From contig JACZKQ010000073.1 in assembly GCA_014859965.1 (NCBI GenBank), positions 1-44,017 of the forward strand: DNA of 44,017 nucleotides, given 5' to 3'. The notes beneath the pieces are model-generated. The model did no database searches, was not told the origin of the DNA, and saw only the letters and a program-made list of their open reading frames with translations. Shown here piece after piece: positions 1,877 through 15,843 of this stretch. This DNA comes from Phycisphaerae bacterium (lineage in GTDB: Bacteria > Planctomycetota > Phycisphaerae > Sedimentisphaerales > Anaerohalosphaeraceae). A program made the position numbers and the translations under genes. The number at the start of each line of letters is the position of its first letter. The stretch's first letter is position 1.

Positions 1877-3160
1877 TCAGGGTCGCTTCAGGTCGTAGCA
1901 AAACAAGGTGTCGTGATAGCGGAGATAGAGCCTCCCGTCGAGAATAACCGGGTGGGCCCACGCGTCCTTGACCTTCTTTTCGGTGAGCGAAAAGCGGCCT
2001 TTGATGTTAAGGGCGCCTTTTGCAGGTTCTATAAGGCCGACCTGGCCGCTCTCGTCGAGAATGTAGAGGCGGTTATCGGCGTACAAGGCGGTGCCGGTGG
2101 TGAAGTCCTTGAGTTCGGCGAGGGTTTCGCCCGTTGGCCAGTCGACGGCAAACCACCATTTGGGAGCATTATAGCCGGCTGCATACAGAACGTTGTCTAC
2201 GAGTAGAGAGCAGCCGGTGACGGTGTCGAGAGGGCATGTCCAGAGGTGCTGGGCGGTGAAGGCGTCGTCGGTGGGCGTGAGATTGTAGCGTCGGCCGAGT
2301 TCGGCGTAGGGAGTGACATAATATATTGCGCCGTCGTTGTATGCTGGAATGGAGATATTTGTGCCGAAGCGGTTCTTGAGGGGCACGGTCCATAAAAGTC
2401 GGCCGGTTTCGGCATCGACACCGAAGCCGAAAGAGGCGGAACAGTTGGAGATGACACGGCGGCCCGCGTGTTCGAAGAGGATGGGGGAACAGTGGGACGT
2501 CTTTTCTTCGGGCAGCGGCGGTGTGGTCCACAGGACGCGGCCGGTGTTCTTGTCGAGAGCGGCCATGAGGGCCTTTGGGCCGGCGGGGGTAACGATGAGA
2601 CGGGGTCCGTCGACGAGGAGGCATTCGCTGAGTGCCCAAGTGATGTTCTTGGCGTCGAAATGTTCGAGGATGTTGAGGGCCCAGAGTTCGCCGCCGGTAG
2701 CGGCGTCGAGACAGGCAACGCGGCCATGGGCGTTCATGTGGTAGACTTTGCCTTCAGAAAAGGTGCAGGTTGCGCGTGCGCCGGGGTAAGGGTTCTTCCA
2801 GGCGTTTCCGTTTTGGACTTGCCAGAGGGGCTTGCCGTTTGTGTCGAATGCAAAGATAACGAGCTTGCCGTCTGCGTCGCCGGTGATGTAGAGGCGGCTG
2901 TCGACAATGATGGGGGAGGACCAGCCGCGGCCGATGCCGTCAATTTTCCAAAGGAGCGGGGGGCCTTCGGCGGGCCAGGTCTGGAGGAGGCCGGTTTCGG
3001 TACTGACGGCGTCGCGCCTGGGGCCCCGCCATTGAGGCCAGCCGGATTCGGGCGAGGCAATGAGGCTTCCGCCGACAACGGGGGCCGCAATTATGCCGGC
3101 GGCAATAAGCATTAGTGAAAGTAACAGTTGGATGTTAAAGGATAGCTTGCGGGTTCTCAT
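1877..3160 (-). CDS. Secreted PQQ-like beta-propeller protein
   Basis: A 427-residue protein with a hydrophobic signal segment (about 9-28), then the planctomycete-typical motif WPQWRGPRRD (41-50). It continues with at least six beta-propeller blades carrying the PQQ-type signature, for example FDTNGKPLWQ, LDAATGGELWAL, LDKNTGRVLWTT and VDAETGRLLWTV. The family (PQQ-like/BamB-like repeats) usually scaffolds protein contacts, and only some members bind PQQ. No alcohol dehydrogenase active site was recognised, so an enzyme function is not claimed. Expected location is periplasmic or surface. Its ATG overlaps the stop of the upstream PspA gene (ATGA), so the two are probably translationally coupled and this is the last gene of the PspA/flotillin/AAA cassette. 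Its exact role is unknown. Confidence 0.88.
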   Translation of the reverse strand: MRTRKLSFNIQLLLSLMLIAAGIIAAPVVGGSLIASPESGWPQWRGPRRDAVSTETGLLQTWPAEGPPLLWKIDGIGRGWSSPIIVDSRLYITGDADGKLVIFAFDTNGKPLWQVQNGNAWKNPYPGARATCTFSEGKVYHMNAHGRVACLDAATGGELWALNILEHFDAKNITWALSECLLVDGPRLIVTPAGPKALMAALDKNTGRVLWTTPPLPEEKTSHCSPILFEHAGRRVISNCSASFGFGVDAETGRLLWTVPLKNRFGTNISIPAYNDGAIYYVTPYAELGRRYNLTPTDDAFTAQHLWTCPLDTVTGCSLLVDNVLYAAGYNAPKWWFAVDWPTGETLAELKDFTTGTALYADNRLYILDESGQVGLIEPAKGALNIKGRFSLTEKKVKDAWAHPVILDGRLYLRYHDTLFCYDLKRP

Positions 3161-3861
3161 GCGAGGGCCTCTCGGTCGGGGTTGTGGGATGATTCGTATC
3201 TTTCCTTCAGTTGGGCAAGGCGCAAATCAACCTCGGCGTCATGGAGTTTGCGGTCCAGGTCGCGGTCGTCGAGCGTCAGGTCCAGGCTGTGCAGGTGATT
3301 TCCGGCTTCGATCTCGGCTTCGGCGCGGTCGATGTTAATTTCCATGCGGGCGACCGTTTCAAGAATGTCGTCGCCGGGCGTCACATGGACGGTTCCTTTC
3401 GGGTTAATCGTTTTCTGCAGTTCAATGCGGCGGCACCGGGCGAGAATCTCCCTTTTTCGAGTTTTGACGTCTTTGAGGTTCTCCTGTAACTGTATGCGAA
3501 CGTGGCGGGCGTTCAGCCAGGCGGTGTGCGCGGCCTCCAGCGCGCCGCGCAGGCGGTGGTTGTTTTCCTCGGCGTCGACCAGGGCGGCAACGGCGCGGCG
3601 GGCGGTGTCCATGTCCTCGGCGCGGATGGCATTTTGGGCGCCGGTTTCAAGGCGCAGGGCTCGGCCGGCGGCCTCATCGATGCGTCGCTGGGCGCCTCGC
3701 GTGGCGGCCATGGCTTTGGCCTCGGCATTGGCGGCCTCTTCAACTTTCTGCGCCATCTCCTTTTCGAGCTGCGGCAGTATGTGTTCGGGCTTCTCGACGG
3801 CGTCGAGGAACGCCTCGATGCGCGCCTTGGTGATGCGTTTAAGTTCTGCGATCCGTCCCAT
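3157..3861 (-). CDS. PspA/IM30 family protein (third paralogue)
   Basis: A 234-residue, almost wholly helical protein with the PspA/IM30 layout: a short N-terminal amphipathic helix (MGRIAELKRITKARIEAFLDAVEKP, seen in residues 1-25), then long charged coiled-coil helices to about residue 150, a linker with TPGDD, and a C-terminal helix ending LHDAEVDLRLAQLKERY. PspA proteins bind stressed inner membrane and assemble into ESCRT-III-like polymers. Length fits the family (about 220-230). It lies 34 bases after the giant AAA+ ATPase gene and overlaps the beta-propeller gene by ATGA. The start at 3861 was chosen because it gives the canonical PspA N-terminus; its ribosome site is weak. It is clearly diverged from the two paralogues at 11992-13408. 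Confidence 0.88.
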   Translation of the reverse strand: MGRIAELKRITKARIEAFLDAVEKPEHILPQLEKEMAQKVEEAANAEAKAMAATRGAQRRIDEAAGRALRLETGAQNAIRAEDMDTARRAVAALVDAEENNHRLRGALEAAHTAWLNARHVRIQLQENLKDVKTRKREILARCRRIELQKTINPKGTVHVTPGDDILETVARMEINIDRAEAEIEAGNHLHSLDLTLDDRDLDRKLHDAEVDLRLAQLKERYESSHNPDREALA

Positions 3862-3895
3862 GGTATTAGGGCTGAGCCCTTACTCCGGAATTATT

Positions 3896-6800
3896 TCAGT
3901 TGTCTGGTCCGGTACGTTTGCGCGTCGGCTGCTGTTCGTCGCTATTCGGATCCGGCGGCTCGGCGGGTATGGGCTCGTACTTGTTGCGGAGGGCCTCAAT
4001 GAGTCTTGTGTAGCCGTCGACCATGCCCTGAAAACGTTTGACGAGGTGCTTGAGATAGGTCTTGCGGTCGGCGTCGCTACGGTGTACGGGGATAAGCCAT
4101 GTTTCCATCGTCCTGAATTGCTCTTCGAGGATGCCGACGAGCATTTGGGTGTTCTTGTTGTTGCGGCGGGCGTCCAGTGTTTGTTCTTGCTCTTGTGTGG
4201 CGGCGCGGCTGTCCTTGAGGGCGGCGATAACCTCGGCCAGGCGGTCAAGCACCTGGCGGCCGATGATCTCGACTGCGTCAGGTTCGGCGCTTCGGGCTTC
4301 TTGTTCGTTCCGGCGCTGAGCCGTCGCGATTCCGCCCGCGAGGACATCCTTGATACCGTCAAGGCCGGCGCTGAAGGCGTTGAGCTGGCCGATGATCCTG
4401 CCGACCTTGTCGTCGGAGTCGCCGCCAAGGAGGAGGTTGCGGGTGAATGTCTTCTTGATTTCGTTGAAGCGTTTGGCCTGCTCAGGGGTAAGTCGGCCGA
4501 TGAGTTCTCGGAACTTGAGCATGTTGGCTTCGGCGCCGGTGGTGAGGGTCTGGGCGTCCTGCTCGTAGCTGGAGGTGATGAGTGTCCAGAGTTCGTGATC
4601 GTTCATAACGGGCAGGACGCGGGCGGCGATTCGGTTCATGTTACGGTAGGAGCCTTGGAGCAAGAAGGGCGGCTCGGTGCGGTATGCGTCAGCCTGGCCG
4701 GCGGAGGCGATGTATTGCTGGTTGACCTTGAGGAGCACCTCGCGGACGACAAAGAGTTTTTTCATCGCGGCTACGTATTCATCGAGTTCGTCGGCGGAAT
4801 AGTTGCCTTCGAATTCGACGTCTTCCTGTCGGCCGGTTTCTGCGATCTTCATGACGGTCTGAACGTCGCGGCTGCTGCGGTTGGCAAGCGTCTGAAGGAT
4901 GGGGTTGGCGGTGAGGCAGTTTTCGACATAGCTTGAGACGAACTCGTCACGGTTGTCGCCCACGATGTCGCCGATGTTGTAGGTGTCGGCGCGGTTGCTG
5001 AGCATGTCGGGGATCTTGAATTTCTCGCCGCTTTCGGTGTAAGGGTTGCCGGCCATGACGACGCAGACGCGCTTGCCGCGGAGGTCGTAGGTGCGGGGCC
5101 GCCCGGCGAAGACGCCCTCGACGCGGCGCTGGGCGTCGCAGAGGGAGATGAACTTCTGAAGAAATTCAGGGTTGGTATGCTGGATATCGTCGACGTAGAT
5201 CATGGCGTTGTCGCCCATTTCAAAGGCGAGGTTAAGCTTATTCAGTTCCTCCCGGGCGGCGGCATTCGGCGCTGTGGCCGGGTCAATGGAGGTGACGTGG
5301 TTTCCGAGAGAGGGGCCGTTGATCTTCATGAAGGTCAGGCCGAGGCGATTGGCGATGTATTCCATGAGCGTGGTTTTGCCGTAGCCCGGGGGGCTGATCA
5401 GCAGCAGCAGGCCCTGTGTGTCGGTGCGCTTGGTTTCATCGGCCGAGCCGATCTGTTTGGCGAGGTTGTCACCGATGAGCGGCAGGAAGACCTTGTCGAT
5501 GAGGCGGTTGCGGACGAAGGTGGAGAGCACGCGGGGCTTGAACTCGTCAAGGCGGAGGCGGTCGGCGTATTGCTCGATGAGCGTTTGTTTGACGCGGCGG
5601 TATGCGAGGAAGCGGGGGACGACGTGCCGGGCGTGGCGGGTGAGGCGGGCCATGAAGTCGCAGTAGTTGAGGTCAATGCCGGCCTGGACGATTCGCGGGT
5701 GCGAGCCCACCATGTCGGTGAGTTGCTGTTCGATGGCTTTGTCGATGACCGGGCGGGATTTCGCCTGCTCGTCGAGCATAAGGACGGCGACTTCATCGGC
5801 GTATTCGATTTTCGAGCCGTCGGCGGCTTTGCGGAGGAAGGCGCGGGCCCAGTCGGTCATGAGGCGGTAACGACCGAGGGCGTCGCCTGTCAGGGCCGTG
5901 TCGATCGCGCCGAAATGCCGGACGAAACGGTGTTTTCGGATATGGTCATGGAGGGCCGTGCGGATGTCGGCTGCGATGCGGCTGACGATGAAGCCGGAGT
6001 CATTTTGACTGGCCAGTTCGTGGAAGAGGTATGTGGCGGCGGGGTCGATCCACGCGGGTTCAAATAGTTGAGTCGCGTTGACGAAAGCGGTGAGCATGTC
6101 GGTGAGTTGGCGGACGTAGGTGCTTTCGACAGCGCTATCGTCGAAGAGTTCGCGAATCCGGCCGGCGCCGGCGATGCGGGCGGCAATGCGTGTTTTGGCG
6201 TCGGCGTCGTCGGAGAGGCTCCAGAAGGCGGCGGCGAGAGCGCGGGCCTGCGTGGGATAGCGCAAGAGGCCGATTTCGGATTGCATTTGTACGAGGGCAT
6301 GGAGAATCGCAGCGGCGTCGTGGTCGTGGACGCCTTTGACGTAGCCTTCGTCGTATCGCGGGCCCATGAATACCTGAACCTGGCGAAGGACCTCTTTGAA
6401 TTCGGCGGCCGCCAAGGCGTGCTTATCGACGGACGCGTCGCCGAGCATGATGTAGGCGAGGTATTCGGCGCGATAGACGTCAGGGCTTTCTGACGGCAGT
6501 TCGAGGTCCCATGTGTCGCGGGCGGCGAGCATGGTTTCGTCGGTGATGGCCTCGAAGAAGCCTGTGCCGGTGAGATGGTAGAACATCTTGTCGTCGCGGC
6601 GGACGATTGTGCCTTCGAGGGGCTGACGGTTTACGCGGAAGCGGTGGCGGCCGAGGCGGATGATATCGTCGCCGTCGGAGAAGAGGGCCTGGCGGTCCTT
6701 GAGCTGGCGGACGGCGTCCTGGTGGAGGGTCTTGAGGCGCGTCTTGACGTCTTCGGCCTTCACGGAATCGCCGAGGGCCAGCAGTTGGTCGACGGTGTCG

Positions 6801-9229
6801 CGGATGCGCTGGACCATGAGATCGGAGGCGAAGTAGCCGTTGATCTCGTTAATATCCGTGAAGCTGCGGAGGCGGTTTTCGATGCCCTTGAGGACGCGCT
6901 GGCCGGCGGCCATGAGGGCGGAGGCCCGCTGGTTACGGCGCGTGACAAGCTGGACTTTGCGGCTTTCGAAGGCGTTGTAGAGTTCTTCGCGTTTTTCGGT
7001 GAGCCGGCCGATGAATGCGTCAAAATCGGCGAAGCGGCCCTCCAGCGTCTCCAGTTGAACGGTGACTTTGGTGAGATATTCGTCACATTTTTCCGGCGTG
7101 TCGCAGACGTCAAGGTAGTTTATGACGGACTGGTCGATGAGCTTGATCTGGGCAGCGAATTCGGCGCGGCCTTCGATGGCGCCGAGTTCATTAGTGCGGT
7201 TTTTGAGAGCACTGCGGACCTGGTTGAGTCGGGAATAGACCAGCGAGATATTGTCAACAACCGCAACAGTCTGGGTGGCGTCGTCGATCTTGAGATTGCT
7301 GACGATCTCGGTGAGCATCTCGAGTTGAATCGCCGTCTCGTCCACGTGCTGCGCGAGTTCTTTGGCTTCGGCGACCTTTTGTGTCTGATCGACCTGCGAG
7401 GCCTGTTCGTCGATGCGGTCTTTGTAGGGGGCGAGCGCCTCGGGATCGAGCAGAAATTCGATGCAGAGAGAACTGAGGCGGTCGGAGTGTTCGGCGACTT
7501 CGGTTTCGAGTTTTTCGATTGCGTCGAGGGCGGCATAGCGGAGGTCTTTGAGGGAGACAATGCGGCCGCGGAGGGCTCGCAGTTGGGCAAGGGGCCGGAC
7601 GTAGGCGTCTATGTTGTTCAGGGCCTCGTAATCGATGGCGGCGATACTCTCATGGACCTGGCGGGCGGCGGCTTCGATCTCACTGCGAGTATTGCGCCGG
7701 GTGCGGACGACTTTTTCAAATTCCTCGATCGCGGCGGCGGCGGCGGTGTGGATACCGGCCAGCGGTTCAGCAAGGTTGAAGGTGTCAACTTCCCCGAGCC
7801 AGAAATAACTGTCGCAGATGTCCTGGGCTTTGCGGGTGATGTCGACGTACAGGTTGGCGTAGGATTCATCCTTCGCCAGCAGGCTGAGCAGTTCGGTGCA
7901 TTCGGCCATGCAGCGGACGATAGGGGTGTTGCCGATCTTGTAGAGCGGGGCGTTTTTGTGGACCTCGATAGCGTGGTCGGGTCCGTAATAAGGAGTGCTC
8001 CAGATTTGCACGGCATGGTGCTTCTGGGGCTGATTGCCGGCTCGGAGGCATATGAGCGTGCCGTCCTCGAAGAGTGACCAGCCGTTGCACACCAGAGGCG
8101 TGCTCATTTGCTGTTCGATAAGATTATAGGGCAGCAGGACGTAGACGCCATTGGGGTGATTGTAGAACACGTAGAGGAAGTCTTCGCCGTTGGGGGAGGT
8201 CATGCGTTTTTCGAAGACCATCTCGGCCATGTTGGTTTCGAACTGTTTAATTTCGCCCGTTTGCAGATAATAGCCGCGGGGAAAGACAAGGCCCTGGCCT
8301 TCGGGCAGAAGGACGCAGGCATCTTTGATGGAGTCGATGCGGACCGCGCGTCGGGTCTTTTCGCTGTAAAGGATGTAGCGGAAAAGCTGCTCCTGGTAGG
8401 GGCGGATCTTGAGGACAATAATGTTGCCGACGATGGCGTAGTAGATTTCGGCGTCGTTGAGCGTCTGGTCGGGGTTGTCGACGGGTTCGTCGTAGATGCC
8501 CTGGCCGGTCTCGGTGTTGTCTTCGATTTTGATGGTGAGGTCGCCGCCGACGGTTTCAACGAAGATACGCTCTTCGATGGAGACGTGGGGGTTGAGGCCG
8601 TGGCGGTGCATGTCCTGGGTGGTGCGCTTCCACTCGAACTGGTGCTGGGCGGGATAGACGAATTCGTGGTCGCTTCGGTTATCGAGATAGCGGAGGCCGT
8701 CCCCGGTCATGAGCCATTTGAAGGTCTTGACGTCCGTGGTGCTCTTGCCTGTCTGGAAGACCATGAACAGGTGCGGGCCGATGATGGCGAACTTGGCGAA
8801 AGTCGTGTGGCGGTAGTACTTGAAGAGGTTCTTGAAGTCGGCGATAAAGCGTTCGTCTTCGATCAGATCGAGGGCGCATTCGACGAAAAGGCCGTCCTGA
8901 AGTCGGTAGACGGAGAAAACGTCGGCGAGGGTTGTTTCGGTGCGGAGGCCGACGAAGACGTTGTAGCCGAAAATAAAACGGTCGTCGACGGGAATCATGT
9001 CGCGGGGGACGCAGTTGTTCTGCGTCGTGACGCGCTCACCGGCGATGAGACGCGATTCGACCGCGCCGAAGACGTCCTTGCGGGCGGCGTTCAAGCGGGT
9101 CATGCGGTCGCGGAGCAGGCCGCCGTGGGTGTCGAGGCGTTTACGAATGACCTCATAGGCGCCGCCCTGAAGCGGGGTGTCCGGGGCGTTTTCGGTCTTG
9201 CCGTTGGCTGTTTTGCTGTTCTCCACCAT
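3896..9229 (-). CDS. Giant AAA+ ATPase with DUF3686-type N-terminus ('DNA repair ATPase')
   Basis: A 1777-residue protein of the DUF3686-containing family that databases name 'DNA repair ATPase'; that name rests on similarity, not on proof. The N-terminal ~480 residues are rich in beta strand. A long charged, coiled-coil-prone stretch follows (about 490-845), then a helical region (850-1250) and one AAA+ module. The Walker A is SPPGYGKTT (Lys1285), with Ser in place of the usual first Gly. The Walker B is MIYVDDIQ (Asp1347/Asp1348), and the sensor-1 Asn is in MAGNP (Asn1395), followed by a likely arginine-finger segment (DMLSNRADTYN). The C-terminal ~270 residues are helical and charged, ending in a polar tail. 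It sits between a flotillin and a PspA gene, so a membrane-associated remodelling or repair role is more likely here than DNA repair (inference). No signal peptide or membrane segment is seen. Confidence 0.85.
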   Translation of the reverse strand: MVENSKTANGKTENAPDTPLQGGAYEVIRKRLDTHGGLLRDRMTRLNAARKDVFGAVESRLIAGERVTTQNNCVPRDMIPVDDRFIFGYNVFVGLRTETTLADVFSVYRLQDGLFVECALDLIEDERFIADFKNLFKYYRHTTFAKFAIIGPHLFMVFQTGKSTTDVKTFKWLMTGDGLRYLDNRSDHEFVYPAQHQFEWKRTTQDMHRHGLNPHVSIEERIFVETVGGDLTIKIEDNTETGQGIYDEPVDNPDQTLNDAEIYYAIVGNIIVLKIRPYQEQLFRYILYSEKTRRAVRIDSIKDACVLLPEGQGLVFPRGYYLQTGEIKQFETNMAEMVFEKRMTSPNGEDFLYVFYNHPNGVYVLLPYNLIEQQMSTPLVCNGWSLFEDGTLICLRAGNQPQKHHAVQIWSTPYYGPDHAIEVHKNAPLYKIGNTPIVRCMAECTELLSLLAKDESYANLYVDITRKAQDICDSYFWLGEVDTFNLAEPLAGIHTAAAAAIEEFEKVVRTRRNTRSEIEAAARQVHESIAAIDYEALNNIDAYVRPLAQLRALRGRIVSLKDLRYAALDAIEKLETEVAEHSDRLSSLCIEFLLDPEALAPYKDRIDEQASQVDQTQKVAEAKELAQHVDETAIQLEMLTEIVSNLKIDDATQTVAVVDNISLVYSRLNQVRSALKNRTNELGAIEGRAEFAAQIKLIDQSVINYLDVCDTPEKCDEYLTKVTVQLETLEGRFADFDAFIGRLTEKREELYNAFESRKVQLVTRRNQRASALMAAGQRVLKGIENRLRSFTDINEINGYFASDLMVQRIRDTVDQLLALGDSVKAEDVKTRLKTLHQDAVRQLKDRQALFSDGDDIIRLGRHRFRVNRQPLEGTIVRRDDKMFYHLTGTGFFEAITDETMLAARDTWDLELPSESPDVYRAEYLAYIMLGDASVDKHALAAAEFKEVLRQVQVFMGPRYDEGYVKGVHDHDAAAILHALVQMQSEIGLLRYPTQARALAAAFWSLSDDADAKTRIAARIAGAGRIRELFDDSAVESTYVRQLTDMLTAFVNATQLFEPAWIDPAATYLFHELASQNDSGFIVSRIAADIRTALHDHIRKHRFVRHFGAIDTALTGDALGRYRLMTDWARAFLRKAADGSKIEYADEVAVLMLDEQAKSRPVIDKAIEQQLTDMVGSHPRIVQAGIDLNYCDFMARLTRHARHVVPRFLAYRRVKQTLIEQYADRLRLDEFKPRVLSTFVRNRLIDKVFLPLIGDNLAKQIGSADETKRTDTQGLLLLISPPGYGKTTLMEYIANRLGLTFMKINGPSLGNHVTSIDPATAPNAAAREELNKLNLAFEMGDNAMIYVDDIQHTNPEFLQKFISLCDAQRRVEGVFAGRPRTYDLRGKRVCVVMAGNPYTESGEKFKIPDMLSNRADTYNIGDIVGDNRDEFVSSYVENCLTANPILQTLANRSSRDVQTVMKIAETGRQEDVEFEGNYSADELDEYVAAMKKLFVVREVLLKVNQQYIASAGQADAYRTEPPFLLQGSYRNMNRIAARVLPVMNDHELWTLITSSYEQDAQTLTTGAEANMLKFRELIGRLTPEQAKRFNEIKKTFTRNLLLGGDSDDKVGRIIGQLNAFSAGLDGIKDVLAGGIATAQRRNEQEARSAEPDAVEIIGRQVLDRLAEVIAALKDSRAATQEQEQTLDARRNNKNTQMLVGILEEQFRTMETWLIPVHRSDADRKTYLKHLVKRFQGMVDGYTRLIEALRNKYEPIPAEPPDPNSDEQQPTRKRTGPDN

Positions 9230-9339
9230 GGTCGGGCTTCTCTGTATTATACGGCTGGATGCCGCGGCGGCCGCGCGGGATCGCTCTGCAGTGGGCTTTG
9301 CGGTCGCGCGCGGCGCGGCTTTTCATCATCAATTTCAGA

Positions 9340-11334
9340 TTACTTTTCGGTAAGGAGCTTGTCGGCCTTCATGTCGGCGATGCCCAATTCCTTGGCCGCA
9401 TGAAGTATACGGCTCAAGGTGCCCTTTTGCTCGGTATCGGCATCAGCCATGAGCCGCATGACGAGGGCACTGACAGACAGGTTCTTGACATCCTCCGACG
9501 AAACACCGAACTGGGAGATGAACCGGCGGATGTTTTCACGATTCAGTTCGGCATCGCCGCCGAGCAGCGTGTCCTTGATGCCGGTGAGGGCGCTGCTGTT
9601 GTCGATCATACGGTCGACGGCCTTGCCGGTCGTGATGGAGTTGACCAGCCGGTTGAAGAAGTTGTTGTCGCCGCCCACGATGTCGATGCGGGCGCTCTTA
9701 AGAGCCTCGCCGACGATCTTCGCCTGTTCGGCCGCGATGTCCTTCTGTATGTTGATGCCCGCCAGTTCCACTTCCTTGTCCTTGTTAATGCGGATCTTGA
9801 ACTCCTCGTGCCCCTTGCCGACGGCGTCGAAGATCTTCATGGCCTCGGCCTTGTCGCGGATGCCGTCGGCCTCGGCATGGTATTTCAGTTCCATGACCTT
9901 GGCCTCAGCAGTGCCCTGTTTTTCGAGGGCGACGGCCTTGGCCTCCATGACTTCGGCTTCGGCGGTGCCTTCGACGGCGTGTTCCTTGACACCTGCTTCA
10001 GCGAGCGTCTTCTTGGCCTCTGCGTTTCGCCCGGCGGCCTCAAGGTTGGCCTGGGCCTCGATAATCTGCTGTTCGGCGTAAAATTCGGTCGCCTTCTTGG
10101 CGGCCTCGGCGGCCTTGATGTCCTTGACCAGGGCCTGCTCGGCCTGTTCTTCGGCTTCGGTGATGGCGACCTTCTTTTGACGGTCGGCCCCGGCGAATGC
10201 GCGGGTGTCCTTGATGCGTTCTTCTTCCAGGACGACGGTCTTCTCGACGGTCACGCGCTCGCGGATGACAGCCTGCAGTTCCTTCTTCTGGCCTTCGATG
10301 ACTTTGTCTTTTTCGACCTGGGCGACGGTGACCAGCCGCTCGCGCTCGGTGGCCTCCAGGCCGCGGTCCCGTTCCACCCGCTCGACCTCGACGGCCTCTG
10401 TGCGCTCCTTATTCTTGGCGGCGACGATGATCTGCCGCAGCTTGTTCTCTTCGGCCACTGCGACCTCCTCGTCGGCGGCGATGCGGGCCTTTTCAGATTT
10501 TTCTCGCTGCTCGGCCTGGACGCGCTTGGTCTCGGCCTCTTCTCGGGCCTGAACGCTGGCGACCTCCCGTTTCTGCTTGGCGTCGGCCTCGGCTAATTGA
10601 CGATTGAGTTCGAGAATCGCCTCCTGGGCCTCGACGTTCTGCTTCGTGATGGTCATGTCCTTTTCTCGCTCGCGGGCGTTGGCTAATTCGAACTGTATGG
10701 CCGTCAGGACGGTGATCTTCTTGATACCCTCGGCGTCCAGGATGTTGTCGGGGCTGAGGAGCTTTTTGTCAGTCTGCTCAAGGTAATCGATGGCGGCGTC
10801 TTCGAGGACATAGCCGTTAAGGTCCGTGCCGATGATGTGGAGAATTTCCTCCTTGAACTTGACGCGTTCGACGTACAACTCGGCGAAATCGAACTGCTTA
10901 CCGATAGTCTTCAATGCCTCGGAGAACTTGGCGTCGAAGAGTTCATAGAGCGCCCGCTCGTCGCTGGCCCGCACGCAGCCGAGAGCCTGGGCGACCTTCT
11001 TGACATCATCGGAGGTGTTATTGACGCGGACAAAGAAGGCCACCTTGATGTCCGCGCGGAGGTTGTCGCGACAAATCAGACCCTGAGAGCCGTGACGGTC
11101 GATTTCGATCCGCTTAACCGAGACATCCATGTACTCGACGCGATGCAGGACCGGCAGCACGATCTTGCCGGAGAAACTCACCTGCGTGCCTCCGAACCCG
11201 TTTCGGATAAGCGCCTGACCCTGGGCAACTTTGCGATAACACTTGACGATCATCGCAAAAAGGGCGAAGACAAGTATAATCGCGCCAATAAGCATGGCCA
11301 TGCCGAGTTCATTGAAAGGAACCGCTGCTAACAT
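9340..11334 (-). CDS. Flotillin-like SPFH/Band 7 protein (YqiK type)
   Basis: A 664-residue flotillin. One membrane segment lies at about 11-31, followed by an SPFH/Band 7 domain (about 34-210; KVAQGQALIRNGFGG is a typical YqiK-type entry). A very long Glu/Ala/Lys-rich coiled coil runs to about residue 560 with repeated AEA/KAEA motifs, and a C-terminal helical tail ends in KADKLLTEK. Flotillins form large oligomeric rings on the inner membrane and organise membrane microdomains. The gene starts 3 bases after the stop of the YqiJ/NfeD-like gene, with its ribosome site (GGAGGATTAAGAA) overlapping that stop, so the two are tightly coupled, as in yqiJ-yqiK of other bacteria. The ATPase gene follows 110 bases downstream. 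Confidence 0.93.
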   Translation of the reverse strand: MLAAVPFNELGMAMLIGAIILVFALFAMIVKCYRKVAQGQALIRNGFGGTQVSFSGKIVLPVLHRVEYMDVSVKRIEIDRHGSQGLICRDNLRADIKVAFFVRVNNTSDDVKKVAQALGCVRASDERALYELFDAKFSEALKTIGKQFDFAELYVERVKFKEEILHIIGTDLNGYVLEDAAIDYLEQTDKKLLSPDNILDAEGIKKITVLTAIQFELANAREREKDMTITKQNVEAQEAILELNRQLAEADAKQKREVASVQAREEAETKRVQAEQREKSEKARIAADEEVAVAEENKLRQIIVAAKNKERTEAVEVERVERDRGLEATERERLVTVAQVEKDKVIEGQKKELQAVIRERVTVEKTVVLEEERIKDTRAFAGADRQKKVAITEAEEQAEQALVKDIKAAEAAKKATEFYAEQQIIEAQANLEAAGRNAEAKKTLAEAGVKEHAVEGTAEAEVMEAKAVALEKQGTAEAKVMELKYHAEADGIRDKAEAMKIFDAVGKGHEEFKIRINKDKEVELAGINIQKDIAAEQAKIVGEALKSARIDIVGGDNNFFNRLVNSITTGKAVDRMIDNSSALTGIKDTLLGGDAELNRENIRRFISQFGVSSEDVKNLSVSALVMRLMADADTEQKGTLSRILHAAKELGIADMKADKLLTEK

Positions 11335-11337
11335 TTC

Positions 11338-11979
11338 TTAATCCTCCAGATTTACCGGTGCAATAATGTGCACGCCCTTCTTTTCATCTTTTCCGATGAC
11401 GACGGCTTCGTCTCCTTTCTGGAAGACATGATCGCTGTCGGCAACAACATTCAGTAATATAGGCGCCCCGCTGGTGGGCACTTCCGCCTGGCCCATTTTG
11501 GCTGAGACCTGGGTGGTGGTTACTTTACAGATGCGCCCGATGACGTCCGCCGGGGCATTGGGATCCTTCTTAAGAGCCATAAACAACCTCGCCAAAGGTG
11601 TGCAGATGATCCTGCATATCAACGGGGATACGACCAGGTTGCCCGCGGCGATGGGCAGGCCCAGAACAAGCGACCCGGATGGATTCAAATAGCCGTTGGC
11701 TATTATCGAAATGACCCAGAGGCACATTGCAAATATACTCAAGAGGATCATAATAGGGATCTTGCCGAGATAAAAGAAGGCAAGCATCCCGTCCAGAACG
11801 CCGACCGAAACATCCAGGTCACTGCCCAGATCGGCGTCTATATCGGTGTCAATGTCGAAGTCGAGGAAGTCAAGGTCCAGTGTTCCGAGGATCACCATCA
11901 GCCAATAGCACACCATCATGGCGAGAAGAATGGTTGCGCCAAAATTGGCGGGCATCAGGGACATTTGCAGAAGTTCCAC
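11338..11979 (-). CDS. YqiJ/NfeD-like membrane protein with OB-fold tail
   Basis: A 213-residue inner-membrane protein. Hydrophobic segments lie at about 13-32, 66-94 and 102-128, followed by a cytoplasmic OB-like beta domain (about 143-208: VIGRICKVTT ... VFQKGDEAVVIGKD). This is the NfeD/YqiJ layout, the usual partner of flotillins. A striking loop at 34-56 holds ten aspartates in 23 residues (alternating DxD pattern), possibly a metal-binding or highly charged extracytoplasmic loop. The start is a GTG at 11979, chosen because AAGGAG precedes it by 8 bases; the gene begins 12 bases after PspA paralogue 2. NfeD-type proteins that lack the ClpP-like protease part, as here, are thought to bind or anchor the flotillin ring. 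Confidence 0.85.
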   Translation of the reverse strand: MELLQMSLMPANFGATILLAMMVCYWLMVILGTLDLDFLDFDIDTDIDADLGSDLDVSVGVLDGMLAFFYLGKIPIMILLSIFAMCLWVISIIANGYLNPSGSLVLGLPIAAGNLVVSPLICRIICTPLARLFMALKKDPNAPADVIGRICKVTTTQVSAKMGQAEVPTSGAPILLNVVADSDHVFQKGDEAVVIGKDEKKGVHIIAPVNLED

Positions 11980-11991
11980 CGCATCTTCTCC

Positions 11992-12669
11992 TTATCCGGC
12001 TTTGCCCTGGTTCAGACGTTCACGGATTTCCGCTAATTCAGCCTCGACCTGCATGTCGCGGGCCTGTTGTGCGAGTTCGATCTCGTTCAGGGCGTCACCG
12101 CGGAGTTCCTGGTTGATCTGCACCTCGGCTTCGGACTGGAGGACCTGGTCTTCGAGCCTGTCGAAGGTGACGCCGTCCGGATTCAGCGATACGGCCCGGC
12201 TAAGGTGCTTGTCGAAGGCTTTCTGGGCTTCGGCGGTGCGCTTGCGGGCCTTGAGGTCCTCAAATTTGAGTTTCGCGGCCTTCAGTTGCTCCTGCAGATT
12301 GATCATGTTGCCGCGAAGCATGTCATAGGTCTGCCGGCCGCGGTCCAGGCCAGGCTTCAGCTGCGCGATCCGCTCGGCCATCCGGACCTTTTCGGCCACC
12401 GCCTTTCGGGCGGCCGTCTCGTCGCCGGCCTTGAGGGCCGCTTCGGCACGCGCGGTGAATTCCGCCTGCTGCTGCTGAAGATGCTGCATCTCGGTTTCGA
12501 GCCGTCGGAAAGTCGCCCCGTAGGTGGCGGCACTTTCCCGCCCTTCGAGCAGGGTTTCTTCGAGTTCCTTGATCTTCGAGGTCAGTTCCTGCTCGGCAGG
12601 CTCGGCCTTGTCAAGCAGCCAGTTGACGTTCGCCCTGGCGATGCGCTGGATGCGTTCGAAAATGGACAT
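11992..12669 (-). CDS. PspA/IM30 family protein (second paralogue)
   Basis: A 225-residue helical protein. It has the PspA N-terminal amphipathic helix (MSIFERIQRIARANVNWLLD), then an all-helical coiled-coil body with Glu/Gln/Ala-rich heptads (AETEMQHLQQQQAEF region, about 60-75), and a C-terminal helix with VEAELAEIRERL. The family is the ESCRT-III-like, membrane-binding phage-shock protein A. An excellent ribosome site (GAGGAG) precedes the ATG at 12669. It lies 58 bases after paralogue 1 and 12 bases before the NfeD-like gene. The N-terminus differs from paralogue 1 (WLLDKAEPAEQ against FLDRAEDPEV), so the pair are old duplicates rather than a recent tandem copy. Confidence 0.9.
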   Translation of the reverse strand: MSIFERIQRIARANVNWLLDKAEPAEQELTSKIKELEETLLEGRESAATYGATFRRLETEMQHLQQQQAEFTARAEAALKAGDETAARKAVAEKVRMAERIAQLKPGLDRGRQTYDMLRGNMINLQEQLKAAKLKFEDLKARKRTAEAQKAFDKHLSRAVSLNPDGVTFDRLEDQVLQSEAEVQINQELRGDALNEIELAQQARDMQVEAELAEIRERLNQGKAG

Positions 12670-12727
12670 CTTATCTGCTCCTCTCTGCCGTCAAGTTGAT
12701 CGGCCGAAACGCCCTGATCAGCGGTTC

Positions 12728-13408
12728 TCAGCCCGCAACACTCTGGCGAATCTGTGACAAACGTGTTTCGACTTCGCTGTCGTGGTCCAGTTCACGCAGC
12801 CGTCGTTCGAGACTTGGGCTTCCATTGGAGGTCCCGGTCAAACTCGCCTGAATTTCCAGTTCCGCCTCGGCCTGTTCCACGCCCGCTTCGAGTCGCGCGA
12901 CGGCGTCCAGAATGCTGTCGGTGGAGCCGGCCGAGCCGAGAACAGTGCGCTGGATTTTTTTCTGCGTTTTGGCCACGCGGGCCCGCGTCAGAATATCTTC
13001 CTTTCGCGTGCGAAGCTCCTCAAGCTGCTGCTGAATGCGCCGGCGTGCGGCGTTGGCGTGGTCCAGCGAGTCGGTCGCCGAGTCGACGTTCTGTTGCGCT
13101 GCGGCGAGATTCTTCTCGGCATCGATCTGTGCCTCGACGGACATACGGGCGGTTTCTTCGTCGCCTTTCTTCAGCGACTGGGCAGCGCCCCGTCCGAAGC
13201 GGTCGACCTTCTCCTGCTGTCGCTTGAGGTCGCGCTGGGCGGCCTTGAGGGCGGCTGACGCCTTGGCTTCGGCTTCCGTCGCGGCCTTGAGCTGCTTGTC
13301 CATTTCTTCGATGAGCACCGGGAAAATAACTTCGGGATCCTCGGCGCGGTCAAGGAATGTTTCGATGCGGCCTACGGTGATTCTGTGGATACGTTTGAAA
13401 AGACCCAT
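12728..13408 (-). CDS. PspA/IM30 family protein (first paralogue, promoter-proximal)
   Basis: A 226-residue PspA/IM30 protein with the canonical N-terminus MGLFKRIHRITVGRIETFLD followed by RAEDPEVIFP, long coiled-coil helices, and the tail LERRLRELDHDSEVETRL. The open frame extends 27 codons upstream, but the ATG at 13408 has a strong ribosome site (AGGAAGGAGT, 5-7 bases away) and gives the family N-terminus, so I chose it. It is the first gene of the minus-strand cassette, with a promoter candidate at 13552-13580. As a family it binds anionic or damaged membrane through helix 0 and polymerises. The other two PspA genes of the cassette suggest hetero-polymers. Confidence 0.92.
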   Translation of the reverse strand: MGLFKRIHRITVGRIETFLDRAEDPEVIFPVLIEEMDKQLKAATEAEAKASAALKAAQRDLKRQQEKVDRFGRGAAQSLKKGDEETARMSVEAQIDAEKNLAAAQQNVDSATDSLDHANAARRRIQQQLEELRTRKEDILTRARVAKTQKKIQRTVLGSAGSTDSILDAVARLEAGVEQAEAELEIQASLTGTSNGSPSLERRLRELDHDSEVETRLSQIRQSVAG

Positions 13409-13551
13409 ATTGATACTCCTTCCTGTTAGGCTTCCGGCTGGGCCGGAATGACCGACGACGGCCGGCATGGGTGCCGGTCTGATCGTCATGCGTAGCCGGC
13501 CAACTCCGCCCTACACAGACGGCACCGGATACGTCCAGAATATCGTATATT

Positions 13552-13580
13552 GTGATAGCATCCCGTCCGATAATTGTCAA
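13552..13580 (-). promoter_or_regulatory. sigma70-type promoter candidate for the PspA/flotillin/AAA cassette
   Basis: On the minus strand TTGACA (13580-13575) is followed after 17 bases by TATCAC (13557-13552). The -35 box is perfect and the -10 is weak, as in regulated promoters. The leader to pspA paralogue 1 would be about 135 nt. I did not find a convincing sigma54 (GG-N10-GC) site. Confidence 0.45.
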
Positions 13581-13824
13581 GAAAATTCCCGCTAATAGGG
13601 AAAAATTTTCGACCTCGCAGGCATTTTATCGTGTTGCCCGCCTTTTCCACAGAAAAAGACGTTGCCCCGAGGCCTTTGTGACATCTTTATTTTTCGGTTT
13701 GCAGAATATTCCGAGTTTTGGCAGTCTAAGCCGCTATCATATGGATCACGGCTCTATGTCCACGACATGGTCGGCGCGAACATGCGGGCGGCAATTAATT
13801 TTTCAAAAAAAAAGCCGCGTCGGC

Positions 13825-13852
13825 TTGACTTTGCGAATGGCCGTGCTATACT
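13825..13852 (+). promoter_or_regulatory. sigma70-type promoter for the gntR-ABC operon
   Basis: TTGACT (13825-13830), a 16-base spacer and TATACT (13847-13852) form a strong match. The expected transcription start is near 13859, leaving about 50 nt of leader that contains the repeated sites at 13866-13892. Confidence 0.65.
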
Positions 13853-13865
13853 TGTGATAGATGGC

Positions 13866-13892
13866 ATAGTACAAATGGCAAGAATAGTACAA
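13866..13892 (+). promoter_or_regulatory. Candidate operator: two direct repeats ATAGTACAA
   Basis: The 9-mer ATAGTACAA occurs at 13866-13874 and again at 13884-13892, an 18-base period, just after the -10 box of the gntR promoter. The position suits self-repression by the GntR/YtrA-type regulator encoded next. Each copy contains the palindrome GTAC. The binding is inference. Confidence 0.4.
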
Positions 13893-13909
13893 TCCGAAGG
13901 GTTGGGCTC

Positions 13910-14314
13910 ATGCAGATAACCATCGATCACGGCTCCGACCGGGCCGTTTACCAGCAGATCATGGATCAAGTCAAGCGAGATATTGCAATGGGGCGATTGA
14001 AGACAGGCCAGCGGCTGCCCACGGTGCGGGAGTTGTCGGCGACGCTGGTCATCAACCCGAACACCATAGCCAAAGCTTACCGGCAGCTCGAACAGGACGG
14101 CATTATTGTGACGCGGCCGGGCGCGGGGACCTTCGCGGCCGAATTGTCGAGTCATCTGAGCCGTACGGTCCGCCGCCGGATACTCCATGAGCAATTAGAA
14201 CTTCTGGTGGTCGAGGCGGTCCACATGCAGATCGACAGTGAGACGCTGCGGGAATGGTTCGAAGGCACGCTGAAACGATTCAGATTCGACGAGAAAGGGC
14301 AGGCTGATGAGTGA
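13910..14314 (+). CDS. GntR-family (YtrA-type) transcriptional regulator
   Basis: A 134-residue regulator. A winged helix-turn-helix of the GntR family fills residues 12-75 (VYQQIMDQVKRDIAMGRL, then GQRLPTVRELS, NPNTIAKAYRQLEQDGII and RPGAGTFA). Only a short helical tail of about 55 residues follows, so there is no FCD or UTRA ligand domain. That is the YtrA subfamily, whose members usually repress an adjacent ABC transporter operon and respond to cell-envelope stress. It overlaps the ABC ATPase gene by 8 bases (ATGAGTGA). The ribosome site is weak. Direct repeats just upstream are a likely operator. Confidence 0.92.
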   Translation: MQITIDHGSDRAVYQQIMDQVKRDIAMGRLKTGQRLPTVRELSATLVINPNTIAKAYRQLEQDGIIVTRPGAGTFAAELSSHLSRTVRRRILHEQLELLVVEAVHMQIDSETLREWFEGTLKRFRFDEKGQADE

Positions 14315-15209
14315 CATTGCGATCGAAGTCAGGGATCTGGTGAAATACTACGGCGGGCGATGCGTACTGGATGGGATCAATCTTAAGATTCATCGGGGCT
14401 GTATCTACGGCTTGTTGGGCCGCAACGGCATCGGCAAGACCACCCTGATCCGCATCCTGTTGGGGCAGGAGCCGGCCAGCCGCGGCAGGACATTCGTCCT
14501 AGGGACCGAATCGATGCAGCTCGGCGCTCGCCAGCGCGGGTGCATCGGCTACGTCGCCGAGGGGCATCATCTCCTTCAGCACTACCGGGTGGGTCCTCTG
14601 GTCCAATTGTGCCGCAAGCTGTCGCGGCAATGGAATCAGTCGTTTTTCGACAAGCTCAACGAAACGTTCCGGCTGCCGATGGACCGGCGCGTGCGAGAGT
14701 TGTCCACCGGCATGAGAGCGCAGCTCAACCTGGCGCTGGCGATGGCCATTGAGCCGGAGGTCCTCATCCTGGACGATCCGACGCTCGGGCTGGATACCGT
14801 CGCACGGCGGCAGTTTCTTGAACTGGCGATCGATGTGATCCAGCGGGAGGGGCGGACCATCCTGTTCAGCTCGCATATTCTCAGCGATGTCGAGCGCATT
14901 GCCGACCGCATCGGGGTGCTGGCGGGGGGCAAACTGGTCGTCGATTGTTCTCTGGAGGAACTCAAGCAGCGCATCCGCAAGATGCAGATCGTGTTTGCCG
15001 ACCGGCCGCCTGACGACCTGCCCTTGACTGGTATTATACGGCAGCAGCGGTCCGGCAATGAAATGGTGATTACTGTGGCCAACTGGAACGCCGCCAAACG
15101 CGCGATGGTCGACACGTTCGGGCCCCGGCATGTCGCGGAGATCCCGATGACGCTGGAAGATCTGTTTATCGAGTGCACCAATCCGGTTCGAATGGCAACG
15201 GGGATATGA
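14307..15209 (+). CDS. ABC transporter ATP-binding protein (YtrB/CcmA-like)
   Basis: A 300-residue ABC ATPase. It has Walker A GRNGIGKT (38-45), a Q-loop with Glu in place of Gln (GYVAEG, 81-86), signature LSTGM (132-136), Walker B VLILDDP (152-158) and an H-loop His in FSSHILSD. Asp replaces the usual catalytic Glu after Walker B (LDDPTLGLD); this is seen in other YtrB-type ATPases and should weaken hydrolysis rather than abolish it (family knowledge plus inference). The last ~80 residues form an extra C-terminal domain. It is encoded between the GntR regulator (8-base overlap) and a permease, so it powers that permease. The substrate is unknown. Confidence 0.93.
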   Translation: MSDIAIEVRDLVKYYGGRCVLDGINLKIHRGCIYGLLGRNGIGKTTLIRILLGQEPASRGRTFVLGTESMQLGARQRGCIGYVAEGHHLLQHYRVGPLVQLCRKLSRQWNQSFFDKLNETFRLPMDRRVRELSTGMRAQLNLALAMAIEPEVLILDDPTLGLDTVARRQFLELAIDVIQREGRTILFSSHILSDVERIADRIGVLAGGKLVVDCSLEELKQRIRKMQIVFADRPPDDLPLTGIIRQQRSGNEMVITVANWNAAKRAMVDTFGPRHVAEIPMTLEDLFIECTNPVRMATGI

Positions 15210-15225
15210 GGGAAAGGAGACAACC

Positions 15226-15843
15226 ATGTGGACGCTGATCAAACGTGAAATCGACGACTGCCGCGTGTTTTTCGTCGCGGGGGTTGCACATGCGGTGTTT
15301 GTGATTCTGGTGCTGATTTCGTCACTTTCCGGCGGCCTGAATATCGGGGCGGGGGCAGGCCCTTTGTTTCTTCTCGTCGGCATGCTGCTGTTTTGCGGCA
15401 TGGGCGCCGGCCAGATGTACATGGACAGGACACGGGGCATCTCGTGCTTTCTCTCGACTTTGTCGGTGACGCGAGGGGCGATCTTTACGGCACGGGTGAT
15501 TACAGGGGTGCTGCTGATTCTCGTGACGCTTGTGCCGATGGCGGCAGGGGGGGTGATTGTTCTTAAGGTGGTCTTGCAGCCGATTCCCGCGTACCAGACG
15601 ATGTTTCTGGATATCGCACGGACCGTGTTCTTGCTGAGCCTGGCGTGCTATTCCTTGGGTCTATTGACGGGCTGGGCCCCGGGCCGGGTTATCCCGACGC
15701 TGGGCGGTGCGACTCTGACCTTTATTCTCATGCCGATCGTCATCATCAAAGGCTTCGGCGTCGAAACCGCGGCGATTCTGGTGCTGCTGACTGTTGCAGC
15801 ACTGCTTCGAAGCCGACAGCATTTTGTCTCAACATCCTTTTAA
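15226..15843 (+). CDS. ABC transporter permease, six predicted membrane segments
   Basis: A 205-residue very hydrophobic protein with about six membrane helices (roughly 20-40, 42-64, 85-110, 125-145, 150-172 and 180-198). This is the size and pattern of ABC-2-like permeases paired with YtrB-type ATPases. The ATG at 15226 has a strong ribosome site (GGAAAGGAGA) 16 bases after the ATPase stop. No sequence motif names the substrate. The next gene starts 10 bases after its stop. Confidence 0.8.
   Translation: MWTLIKREIDDCRVFFVAGVAHAVFVILVLISSLSGGLNIGAGAGPLFLLVGMLLFCGMGAGQMYMDRTRGISCFLSTLSVTRGAIFTARVITGVLLILVTLVPMAAGGVIVLKVVLQPIPAYQTMFLDIARTVFLLSLACYSLGLLTGWAPGRVIPTLGGATLTFILMPIVIIKGFGVETAAILVLLTVAALLRSRQHFVSTSF

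What the first reader, a model, noticed from the sequence alone, without database searches (positions are those of the whole stretch)
1877..13408. Three PspA/IM30 paralogues, NfeD-like protein, flotillin, giant AAA+ ATPase and beta-propeller in one cassette: a possible ESCRT-III/Vps4-like machine
Seven minus-strand genes run in order pspA1-pspA2-yqiJ/nfeD-flotillin-DUF3686 AAA+-pspA3-propeller, with gaps of 3 to 110 bases and one ATGA overlap. PspA/IM30 proteins are established ESCRT-III superfamily members, and eukaryotic ESCRT-III is remodelled by a AAA+ ATPase (Vps4). PspA-flotillin and YqiJ-YqiK pairings are known from other bacteria. Three PspA paralogues sharing an operon with a 1777-residue AAA+ protein suggest a multi-subunit polymer with a dedicated remodelling ATPase. 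The Vps4-like role is inference.
Basis: partly seen in the sequence, partly recalled or inferred. Interest (0 to 1): 0.8.

Follow-up and report, generated by a model that had tools for sequence, protein, structure and literature searches.

The report
Three-PspA flotillin-ATPase membrane operon
A group of related bacteria carries a conserved six-gene operon that joins three anciently separated PspA proteins (bacterial relatives of the ESCRT-III membrane-shaping proteins) to a flotillin scaffold and a giant ATPase; the flotillin-ATPase core is widespread and already described, but the three-PspA version looks like an undescribed variant that could test whether bacteria build mixed ESCRT-III-type polymers.

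Summary
Observation confirmed: seven tightly spaced minus-strand genes, three of them PspA_IM30. Relatives show that six form the unit (pspA1-pspA2-yqiJ-flotillin-ATPase-pspA3); the end propeller occurs only in this genome. In 68 DUF3686 genomes from several phyla a flotillin gene lies directly upstream in every case and yqiJ in 62 of 65 with sequence; PspA lies nearby in only 14. The core is therefore YqiJ-flotillin-ATPase, with PspA an add-on. Ravi et al. 2024 already described such operons (with one CesT/Tir-linked PspA) and suggested an ESCRT analogy, so the general idea is not new. New here: pspA1, pspA2 and pspA3 are three ancient orthologous groups, kept in the same order in four families across at least two orders, never found here without this operon, and distinct from the CesT-linked PspA lineage, which these genomes lack. 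Membrane-inserting helix strength grades pspA2 > pspA1 > pspA3, suggesting specialised subunits. The ATPase is active-looking AAA+ but fails Vps4-family tests (no MIT, no Vps4_C, no Vps4 in sequence hits), and it persists in genomes without PspA. Best reading: a flotillin-scaffolded membrane-stress module recruiting a composite PspA polymer; the ATPase's primary client is probably flotillin. New variant of a known kind; mechanism untested.

The parts
12728..13408 (-). pspA1, 226 aa, first gene; ATG at 13408 preceded by AGGAAGGAG (a longer in-frame ORF starts at 13489)
   Evidence: Pfam PspA_IM30 5e-23; Shine-Dalgarno-like upstream; orthologous group 93/78
11992..12669 (-). pspA2, 225 aa; strongest amphipathic N-terminal helix of the three
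   Evidence: Pfam 4e-27; orthologous group 100/100; hydrophobic moment 0.60
11338..11979 (-). yqiJ/DUF1449/YuaF-like membrane protein, 213 aa, hydrophobic N-terminal half and soluble C-terminal (NfeD-type) domain
   Evidence: YqiJ_N 1.4e-4, just below cut-off; hydrophobic segments; upstream of flotillin in 62 of 65 loci
9340..11334 (-). flotillin (SPFH + long coiled coil), 664 aa, one N-terminal hydrophobic segment
   Evidence: 41% over 586 aa to a Band_7 protein; directly upstream of the DUF3686 ATPase in 68 of 68 loci
3896..9229 (-). DUF3686/DUF7902/AAA+ giant ATPase, 1777 aa: beta-rich N-terminal domain, coiled coil, C-terminal AAA+ module (aa ~1240-1400)
   Evidence: Pfam; invariant SPPGYGKT Walker A, DD Walker B, MAGNPYT sensor-1-like, NR near a predicted arginine-finger position across 21 diverse homologues
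3157..3861 (-). pspA3, 234 aa, downstream of the ATPase; weak N-terminal amphipathic helix
   Evidence: Pfam 8e-14; orthologous group 99/96, sister of pspA1; moment 0.21
1877..3160 (-). exported/anchored PQQ-like (BamB-type) beta-propeller, 427 aa; translationally coupled here by ATGA but not conserved
   Evidence: PQQ_2 4e-29; no homologue at the other loci
13490..13909 (.). intergenic region between the operon and a divergent GntR-family regulator; presumed promoter region
   Evidence: gene layout; GntR 1.2e-17 at 13910-14314

Best explanation
This is a clade-specific, three-PspA version of the known YqiJ-flotillin-DUF3686 ATPase operon, a cytoplasmic-membrane maintenance or envelope-stress module. 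Shown: gene content, conserved order, ancient separation and joint inheritance of pspA1/2/3 with the flotillin-ATPase core, intact AAA+ motifs. Inferred: YqiJ and flotillin build a membrane-anchored scaffold; the giant ATPase docks on that scaffold through its propeller-like and coiled-coil N-terminus and uses ATP to remodel or extract scaffold subunits; the three PspA proteins assemble at that site as a composite ESCRT-III-type polymer, with PspA2 (strongest membrane helix) as main membrane binder and PspA1/PspA3 as weaker-binding, modulating subunits. Whether the ATPase also takes PspA as substrate is open.
For: Flotillin directly upstream of DUF3686 in 68/68 genomes of several phyla, yqiJ in 62/65. 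pspA1-pspA2-yqiJ-flotillin-ATPase-pspA3 recurs with the same order in G142, G382 (over two contigs), G632 (pspA3 at contig end), G662, G504, G491 and G712, in four families. Each PspA is one orthologous group (93/78, 100/100, 99/96) and the ATPases of these genomes form one clade (SH-aLRT 100) in which the 3 PspA-less members are nested, suggesting losses. No DUF3686-negative genome among 382 of the class has three PspA genes, against 9 of 15 positives (counting G632, whose third is cut by a contig end; p 8e-15, not corrected for kinship); in the two order-level exceptions, G714 and G732, the contig ends inside flotillin before the ATPase. The helix strength ranks the same way across orthologues: pspA2 0.50-0.63, pspA1 0.35-0.42, pspA3 0.19-0.42. 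Literature: an SPFH protein recruits PspA to the membrane in B. subtilis (PMC8581546); PspA remodels membranes (PMC11746142).
Against: No interaction, expression or phenotype data. The structure models were poor (pLDDT 51 and 57), so docking and ATPase type rest on sequence. pspA3 is unlinked in G371 and all PspA genes are gone in at least six relatives with an intact core, so the PspA trio is not essential to the core. A helical hydrophobic moment is a weak proxy for membrane binding, and pspA1/pspA3 moments are not above shuffled helices individually.
Confidence: 0.5

Rival explanations
1. Vps4-like machine: the DUF3686 ATPase's main job is to extract PspA subunits and turn over a composite PspA polymer, as Vps4 does for ESCRT-III.
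For: Co-inheritance of three PspA paralogues with one ATPase. PspA joins this ATPase's neighbourhood in unrelated lineages with different PspA clades: CesT-linked PspA in Hymenobacter and pQBR103, the trio here, another clade in G027. Ravi et al. proposed ESCRT analogues (PMC11237479).
Against: Only 14 of 68 DUF3686 loci have PspA nearby; 9 of 39 DUF3686 genomes of the phylum set have no PspA_IM30 hit anywhere. No MIT or Vps4_C domain; no Vps4 among listed PDB sequence matches, which cover little more than the Walker A region. The PspAs end close to the core with no conserved C-terminal tail that could carry a MIM-like motif.
Confidence: 0.25
2. Flotillin remodeller with PspA only co-regulated: the ATPase acts on the YqiJ-flotillin scaffold, and the PspA proteins are independent membrane-repair effectors induced by the same stress.
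For: Universal flotillin-ATPase linkage and persistence without PspA; multiple PspA copies per genome are common in bacteria (PMC9239133).
Against: The trio never occurs without the core here, and pspA3 sits beyond the ATPase gene in conserved order, which is more than shared regulation needs.
Confidence: 0.35
3. The three PspAs are redundant dosage or regulatory copies rather than subunits of one polymer.
For: Paralogous PspA/PspC copies are frequent; pspA3 evolves fast (branches 0.4-0.9).
Against: All three groups predate the split of families and are retained as distinct orthologues with different N-terminal helices.
Confidence: 0.15
4. DNA-repair ATPase, as the Pfam description and many annotations say.
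For: Database name only.
Against: Linked to membrane proteins in every genome looked at.
Confidence: 0.03

Closest known systems
CesT/Tir-PspA + band-7/flotillin + propeller/coiled-coil AAA+ ATPase + YqiJ/YuaF operon (Ravi et al. 2024, PMC11237479)
   Same: [quoted passage not shown] ESCRT analogy already proposed.
   Different: Here three PspA paralogues of a separate lineage replace one CesT-linked PspA; no CesT_Tir_1 gene in any of 12 trio-bearing genomes; no phospholipase D gene among the operon genes.
Pseudomonas aeruginosa bacABCDEF (PMC10948618)
   Same: Six-gene operon with a PspA homologue (BacB), shown by RT-PCR; linked to biofilm formation. That BacC-F are YqiJ, flotillin, ATPase and phospholipase D is my recollection, not tested here.
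   Different: Has a YjfI/CesT-like BacA and one PspA.
B. subtilis pspA-ydjGHI (PMC8581546)
   Same: PspA recruited to the membrane by an SPFH protein with membrane-integral partners.
   Different: One PspA, no giant ATPase, different membrane partners.
ESCRT-III / Vps4 (eukaryotes, archaea)
   Same: PspA belongs to the ESCRT-III superfamily; several paralogous subunits plus an AAA+ ATPase.
   Different: The ATPase is not of the Vps4 family; no MIT domain; a flotillin scaffold is central.

Membership tests
PspA/IM30 (ESCRT-III superfamily) | PspA_IM30 profile over most of the protein, above the curated cut-off | tested here: met
   All three: 52-96 bits against 33.9
PspA/IM30 (ESCRT-III superfamily) | N-terminal amphipathic membrane helix alpha0 | tested here: inconclusive
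   Clear in PspA2, moderate in PspA1, weak in PspA3
PspA/IM30 (ESCRT-III superfamily) | Assembly into rods or rings that remodel membranes | not testable with these tools
   needs purified protein
DUF3686 ATPase | PF12458 plus intact C-terminal AAA+ motifs | tested here: met
   608.7 bits; invariant Walker A and DD Walker B in 21 homologues
Vps4 | N-terminal MIT domain and Vps4_C oligomerisation domain | tested here: not met
   Neither in the Pfam scan
Vps4 | Closest sequence relatives are Vps4 / meiotic-clade AAA proteins | tested here: not met
   Listed PDB matches are p97/Cdc48, NVL/Rix7, AFG2, NSF, RuvB, mostly over the Walker A region; no Vps4
Vps4 | AAA fold of the classical clade by structure | tested here: inconclusive
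   Model pLDDT 51; FtsH, spastin, Rix7, RuvB all match weakly
Vps4 | ATP-dependent disassembly of ESCRT-III polymer | not testable with these tools
   needs biochemistry
CesT/Tir-PspA-flotillin-AAA-YqiJ operon (Ravi) | flotillin + YqiJ + DUF3686-type AAA in one operon | tested here: met
CesT/Tir-PspA-flotillin-AAA-YqiJ operon (Ravi) | CesT/Tir-PspA dyad | tested here: not met
   No CesT_Tir_1 in the genome or in 11 other trio genomes; PspA trio is a separate clade from the CesT-linked PspAs. DUF2170/YjfI was not searched genome-wide
Flotillin (SPFH) | SPFH/Band_7 domain followed by coiled coil | tested here: met
   Via 41% identity over 586 aa to a Band_7-positive homologue; no direct Pfam hit

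The most novel reading that the evidence does not exclude
A bacterial composite ESCRT-III system: three dedicated, functionally distinct PspA subunits form one mixed polymer on a flotillin platform and are remodelled by a dedicated non-Vps4 AAA+ ATPase, so subunit specialisation and ATPase-driven polymer turnover would have arisen in bacteria independently of archaeal/eukaryotic Vps4.
Probability: 0.22. Interest if true: 0.85.

Novelty: new variant of a known kind. Interest (0 to 1): 0.52.

Why it matters
Bacterial PspA/Vipp1 are studied as homopolymers without a dedicated remodelling ATPase. An operon that keeps three ancient PspA paralogues with one AAA+ protein and a flotillin makes two open questions directly testable: do bacteria build composite ESCRT-III-type polymers, and can a non-Vps4 ATPase drive their turnover? 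It also gives the DUF3686 'DNA repair ATPase' family an invariant genetic partner, flotillin, that points to membrane biology.

Tried and rejected
Vps4 membership: rejected on domain content and sequence matches. Viral-contig scan for the ATPase to deepen the alignment: no relatives. Named-genome scan: only two Verrucomicrobiota relatives. Naming the phylum by a 16S pattern: none found in the assembly. A 598-aa classical AAA ATPase next to the triad in some genomes looked like a Vps4 candidate; apart from weak generic AAA matches it is absent from the window's genome and from the trio genomes searched, and the apparent copy in G142 is FtsH-like. The helical protein beside it is not demonstrably PspA-like (hhalign probability 1%). 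Defence-system reading: only borderline PADLOC hits. One search failed through wrong coordinates; one search timed out and was redone.
Full report
What is there. The window (contig C141 of a 5.28 Mb, 99%-complete assembly) holds seven minus-strand genes at 13408-1877 with gaps 58, 12, 3, 110, 34 and -4 bases. Pfam gives PspA_IM30 for three, DUF3686 + DUF7902 + AAA for the 1777-aa protein, a borderline YqiJ_N for the membrane protein and a PQQ/BamB-like propeller for the last. The flotillin has no Pfam hit but is 41% identical over 586 aa to a Band_7-positive homologue on plasmid pQBR103. The genome has no other PspA_IM30 or DUF3686 gene. The operon starts next to a divergent GntR-family regulator and ABC transporter. 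The organism's phylum is not named by the tools; I suspect a Planctomycetota/PVC bacterium from gene content, unverified.

Which genes belong together. I fetched the surroundings of DUF3686 genes from 68 genomes: the window's phylum sample, its class and order, two Verrucomicrobiota contigs and 11 plasmid-collection records from Bacteroidota, Actinomycetota, Deinococcota and Pseudomonadota. A flotillin gene lies directly upstream of the ATPase in all 68 and yqiJ upstream of flotillin in 62 of the 65 where the contig reaches. PspA is nearby in 14. The propeller gene is found nowhere else. So the ancestral unit is yqiJ-flotillin-ATPase; PspA is an addition.

The three-PspA variant. pspA1-pspA2-yqiJ-flotillin-ATPase-pspA3 recurs in G142, G382 (over two contigs), G632 (pspA3 at the contig end), G662, G504, G712 and, outside the order, G491; G617 fits it over two contigs; G371 keeps pspA3 unlinked; G714 and G732 show pspA1-pspA2-yqiJ-flotillin and then the contig ends. 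In a 48-row tree each PspA position is one orthologous group (93/78, 100/100, 99/96), with pspA1 and pspA3 as sisters, so the duplications predate the split of families f1, f2, f93 and f111. The ATPases of these genomes also form one clade (SH-aLRT 100), in which the PspA-less G478, G534 and G576 are nested, suggesting loss. Among 397 genomes of the class, three PspA genes occur in 9 of 15 DUF3686-positive genomes (counting G632, whose third is cut by a contig end) and in none of 382 negative ones (p 8e-15 by Fisher, without correction for kinship). In the window's family, PspA above cut-off and DUF3686 were present or absent together in all 27 genomes listed in that sample (6 with both, 21 with neither); the fuller order census adds one genome, G723, with an ordinary PspA and no DUF3686.

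Differences between the three. The predicted N-terminal helix is strongly amphipathic in PspA2 orthologues (moment 0.50-0.63), intermediate in PspA1 (0.35-0.42) and weak in PspA3 (0.19-0.42, one row with a mis-picked start). This is a hint of division of labour, as with ESCRT-III subunits, not proof.

The ATPase. Walker A (SPPGYGKT), Walker B (DD), a sensor-1-like MAGNPYT and an NR motif are invariant or nearly so across 21 diverse homologues, so it is probably an active AAA+ enzyme. Nothing marks it as Vps4: no MIT or Vps4_C, and the listed PDB sequence matches are to p97, Rix7/NVL, AFG2, NSF and RuvB, mostly around Walker A. Structure models were too poor to place it. It also exists in genomes with no detectable PspA (9 of 39).

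How it most likely works. Shown: composition, order, co-inheritance, intact motifs. Inferred: YqiJ and flotillin form a membrane scaffold; the ATPase works on it; in this clade a composite PspA polymer is assembled there, in line with SPFH-dependent PspA recruitment in B. subtilis (PMC8581546) and membrane remodelling by PspA (PMC11746142). Whether the ATPase pulls on PspA is undecided; I give about 25% to a mainly PspA-directed, Vps4-like role.

Against what is known. Ravi et al. 2024 (PMC11237479) describe operons joining a CesT/Tir-PspA dyad with a TM-band-7-flotillin protein, an AAA+ ATPase fused to coiled coil and propeller repeats, and YqiJ/YuaF, note PspA-less short versions, and propose ESCRT-like roles. 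The Hymenobacter plasmid copy (CesT-PspA-DUF1449-flotillin-ATPase) fits that description. The P. aeruginosa bac operon is probably a studied relative (PMC10948618); its later genes were not checked here. The present operon differs: its PspAs are a separate lineage, there are three, and no CesT_Tir_1 gene exists in any of 12 trio-bearing genomes, whereas in G130, G017 and G036 CesT sits beside a PspA elsewhere in the genome. PspA proteins from at least three different clades have joined this ATPase's neighbourhood, which argues for a functional link. No paper in the library contains 'DUF3686' and I found none describing the three-PspA arrangement, within an open-access library and a handful of searches. 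Verdict: real, a new variant of a known kind, interesting mainly as a test bed for composite bacterial ESCRT-III polymers.

Noticed in passing
L047 8063-10928; L049 1-2350; L053 3795-6629; L063 7437-10090; L072 2148-4770; L088 2317-5204; L038 1072-3588: Near the yqiJ-flotillin-ATPase triad several other genomes carry a second pair: a helical coiled-coil protein (in L038 a true PspA_IM30 protein) plus a ~600-aa classical AAA ATPase with RRPGR motif, resembling the PspA-linked AAA protein mentioned by Ravi et al. It is a better Vps4-like candidate by sequence; apart from weak generic AAA matches it is absent from the window's genome.
   Followed up: partly
G048, G069, G137, G181, G194, G227, G238, G024, G266 (family f30), e.g. 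L108, L109: Conserved short PspA-like proteins that match only positions ~3-140 of the 220-position PspA profile (open frames ~183-205 aa), a possible half-length ESCRT-III-type family.
   Followed up: no
window 13910-15843 (+): GntR-family regulator (e.g. YtrA-like) overlapping an ABC ATPase and a membrane protein, divergent from the pspA operon; could be its regulator or an envelope-stress transporter.
   Followed up: no
L089 7700-8275: G632 carries a truncated second flotillin ORF (191 aa) between yqiJ and the full-length flotillin.
   Followed up: no
L077 986-6110 (pQBR103): On this plasmid the flotillin-ATPase triad follows a YjfI-PspA-DUF2491-DUF350-DUF1190-glutathionylspermidine synthase cluster: two of Ravi's operon types side by side on a mobile element.
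   Followed up: no
window 3896-9229: DUF3686 is labelled 'ATPase involved in DNA repair' in Pfam and 'DNA repair ATPase' in annotations; the invariant flotillin linkage suggests the name is misleading.
   Followed up: partly
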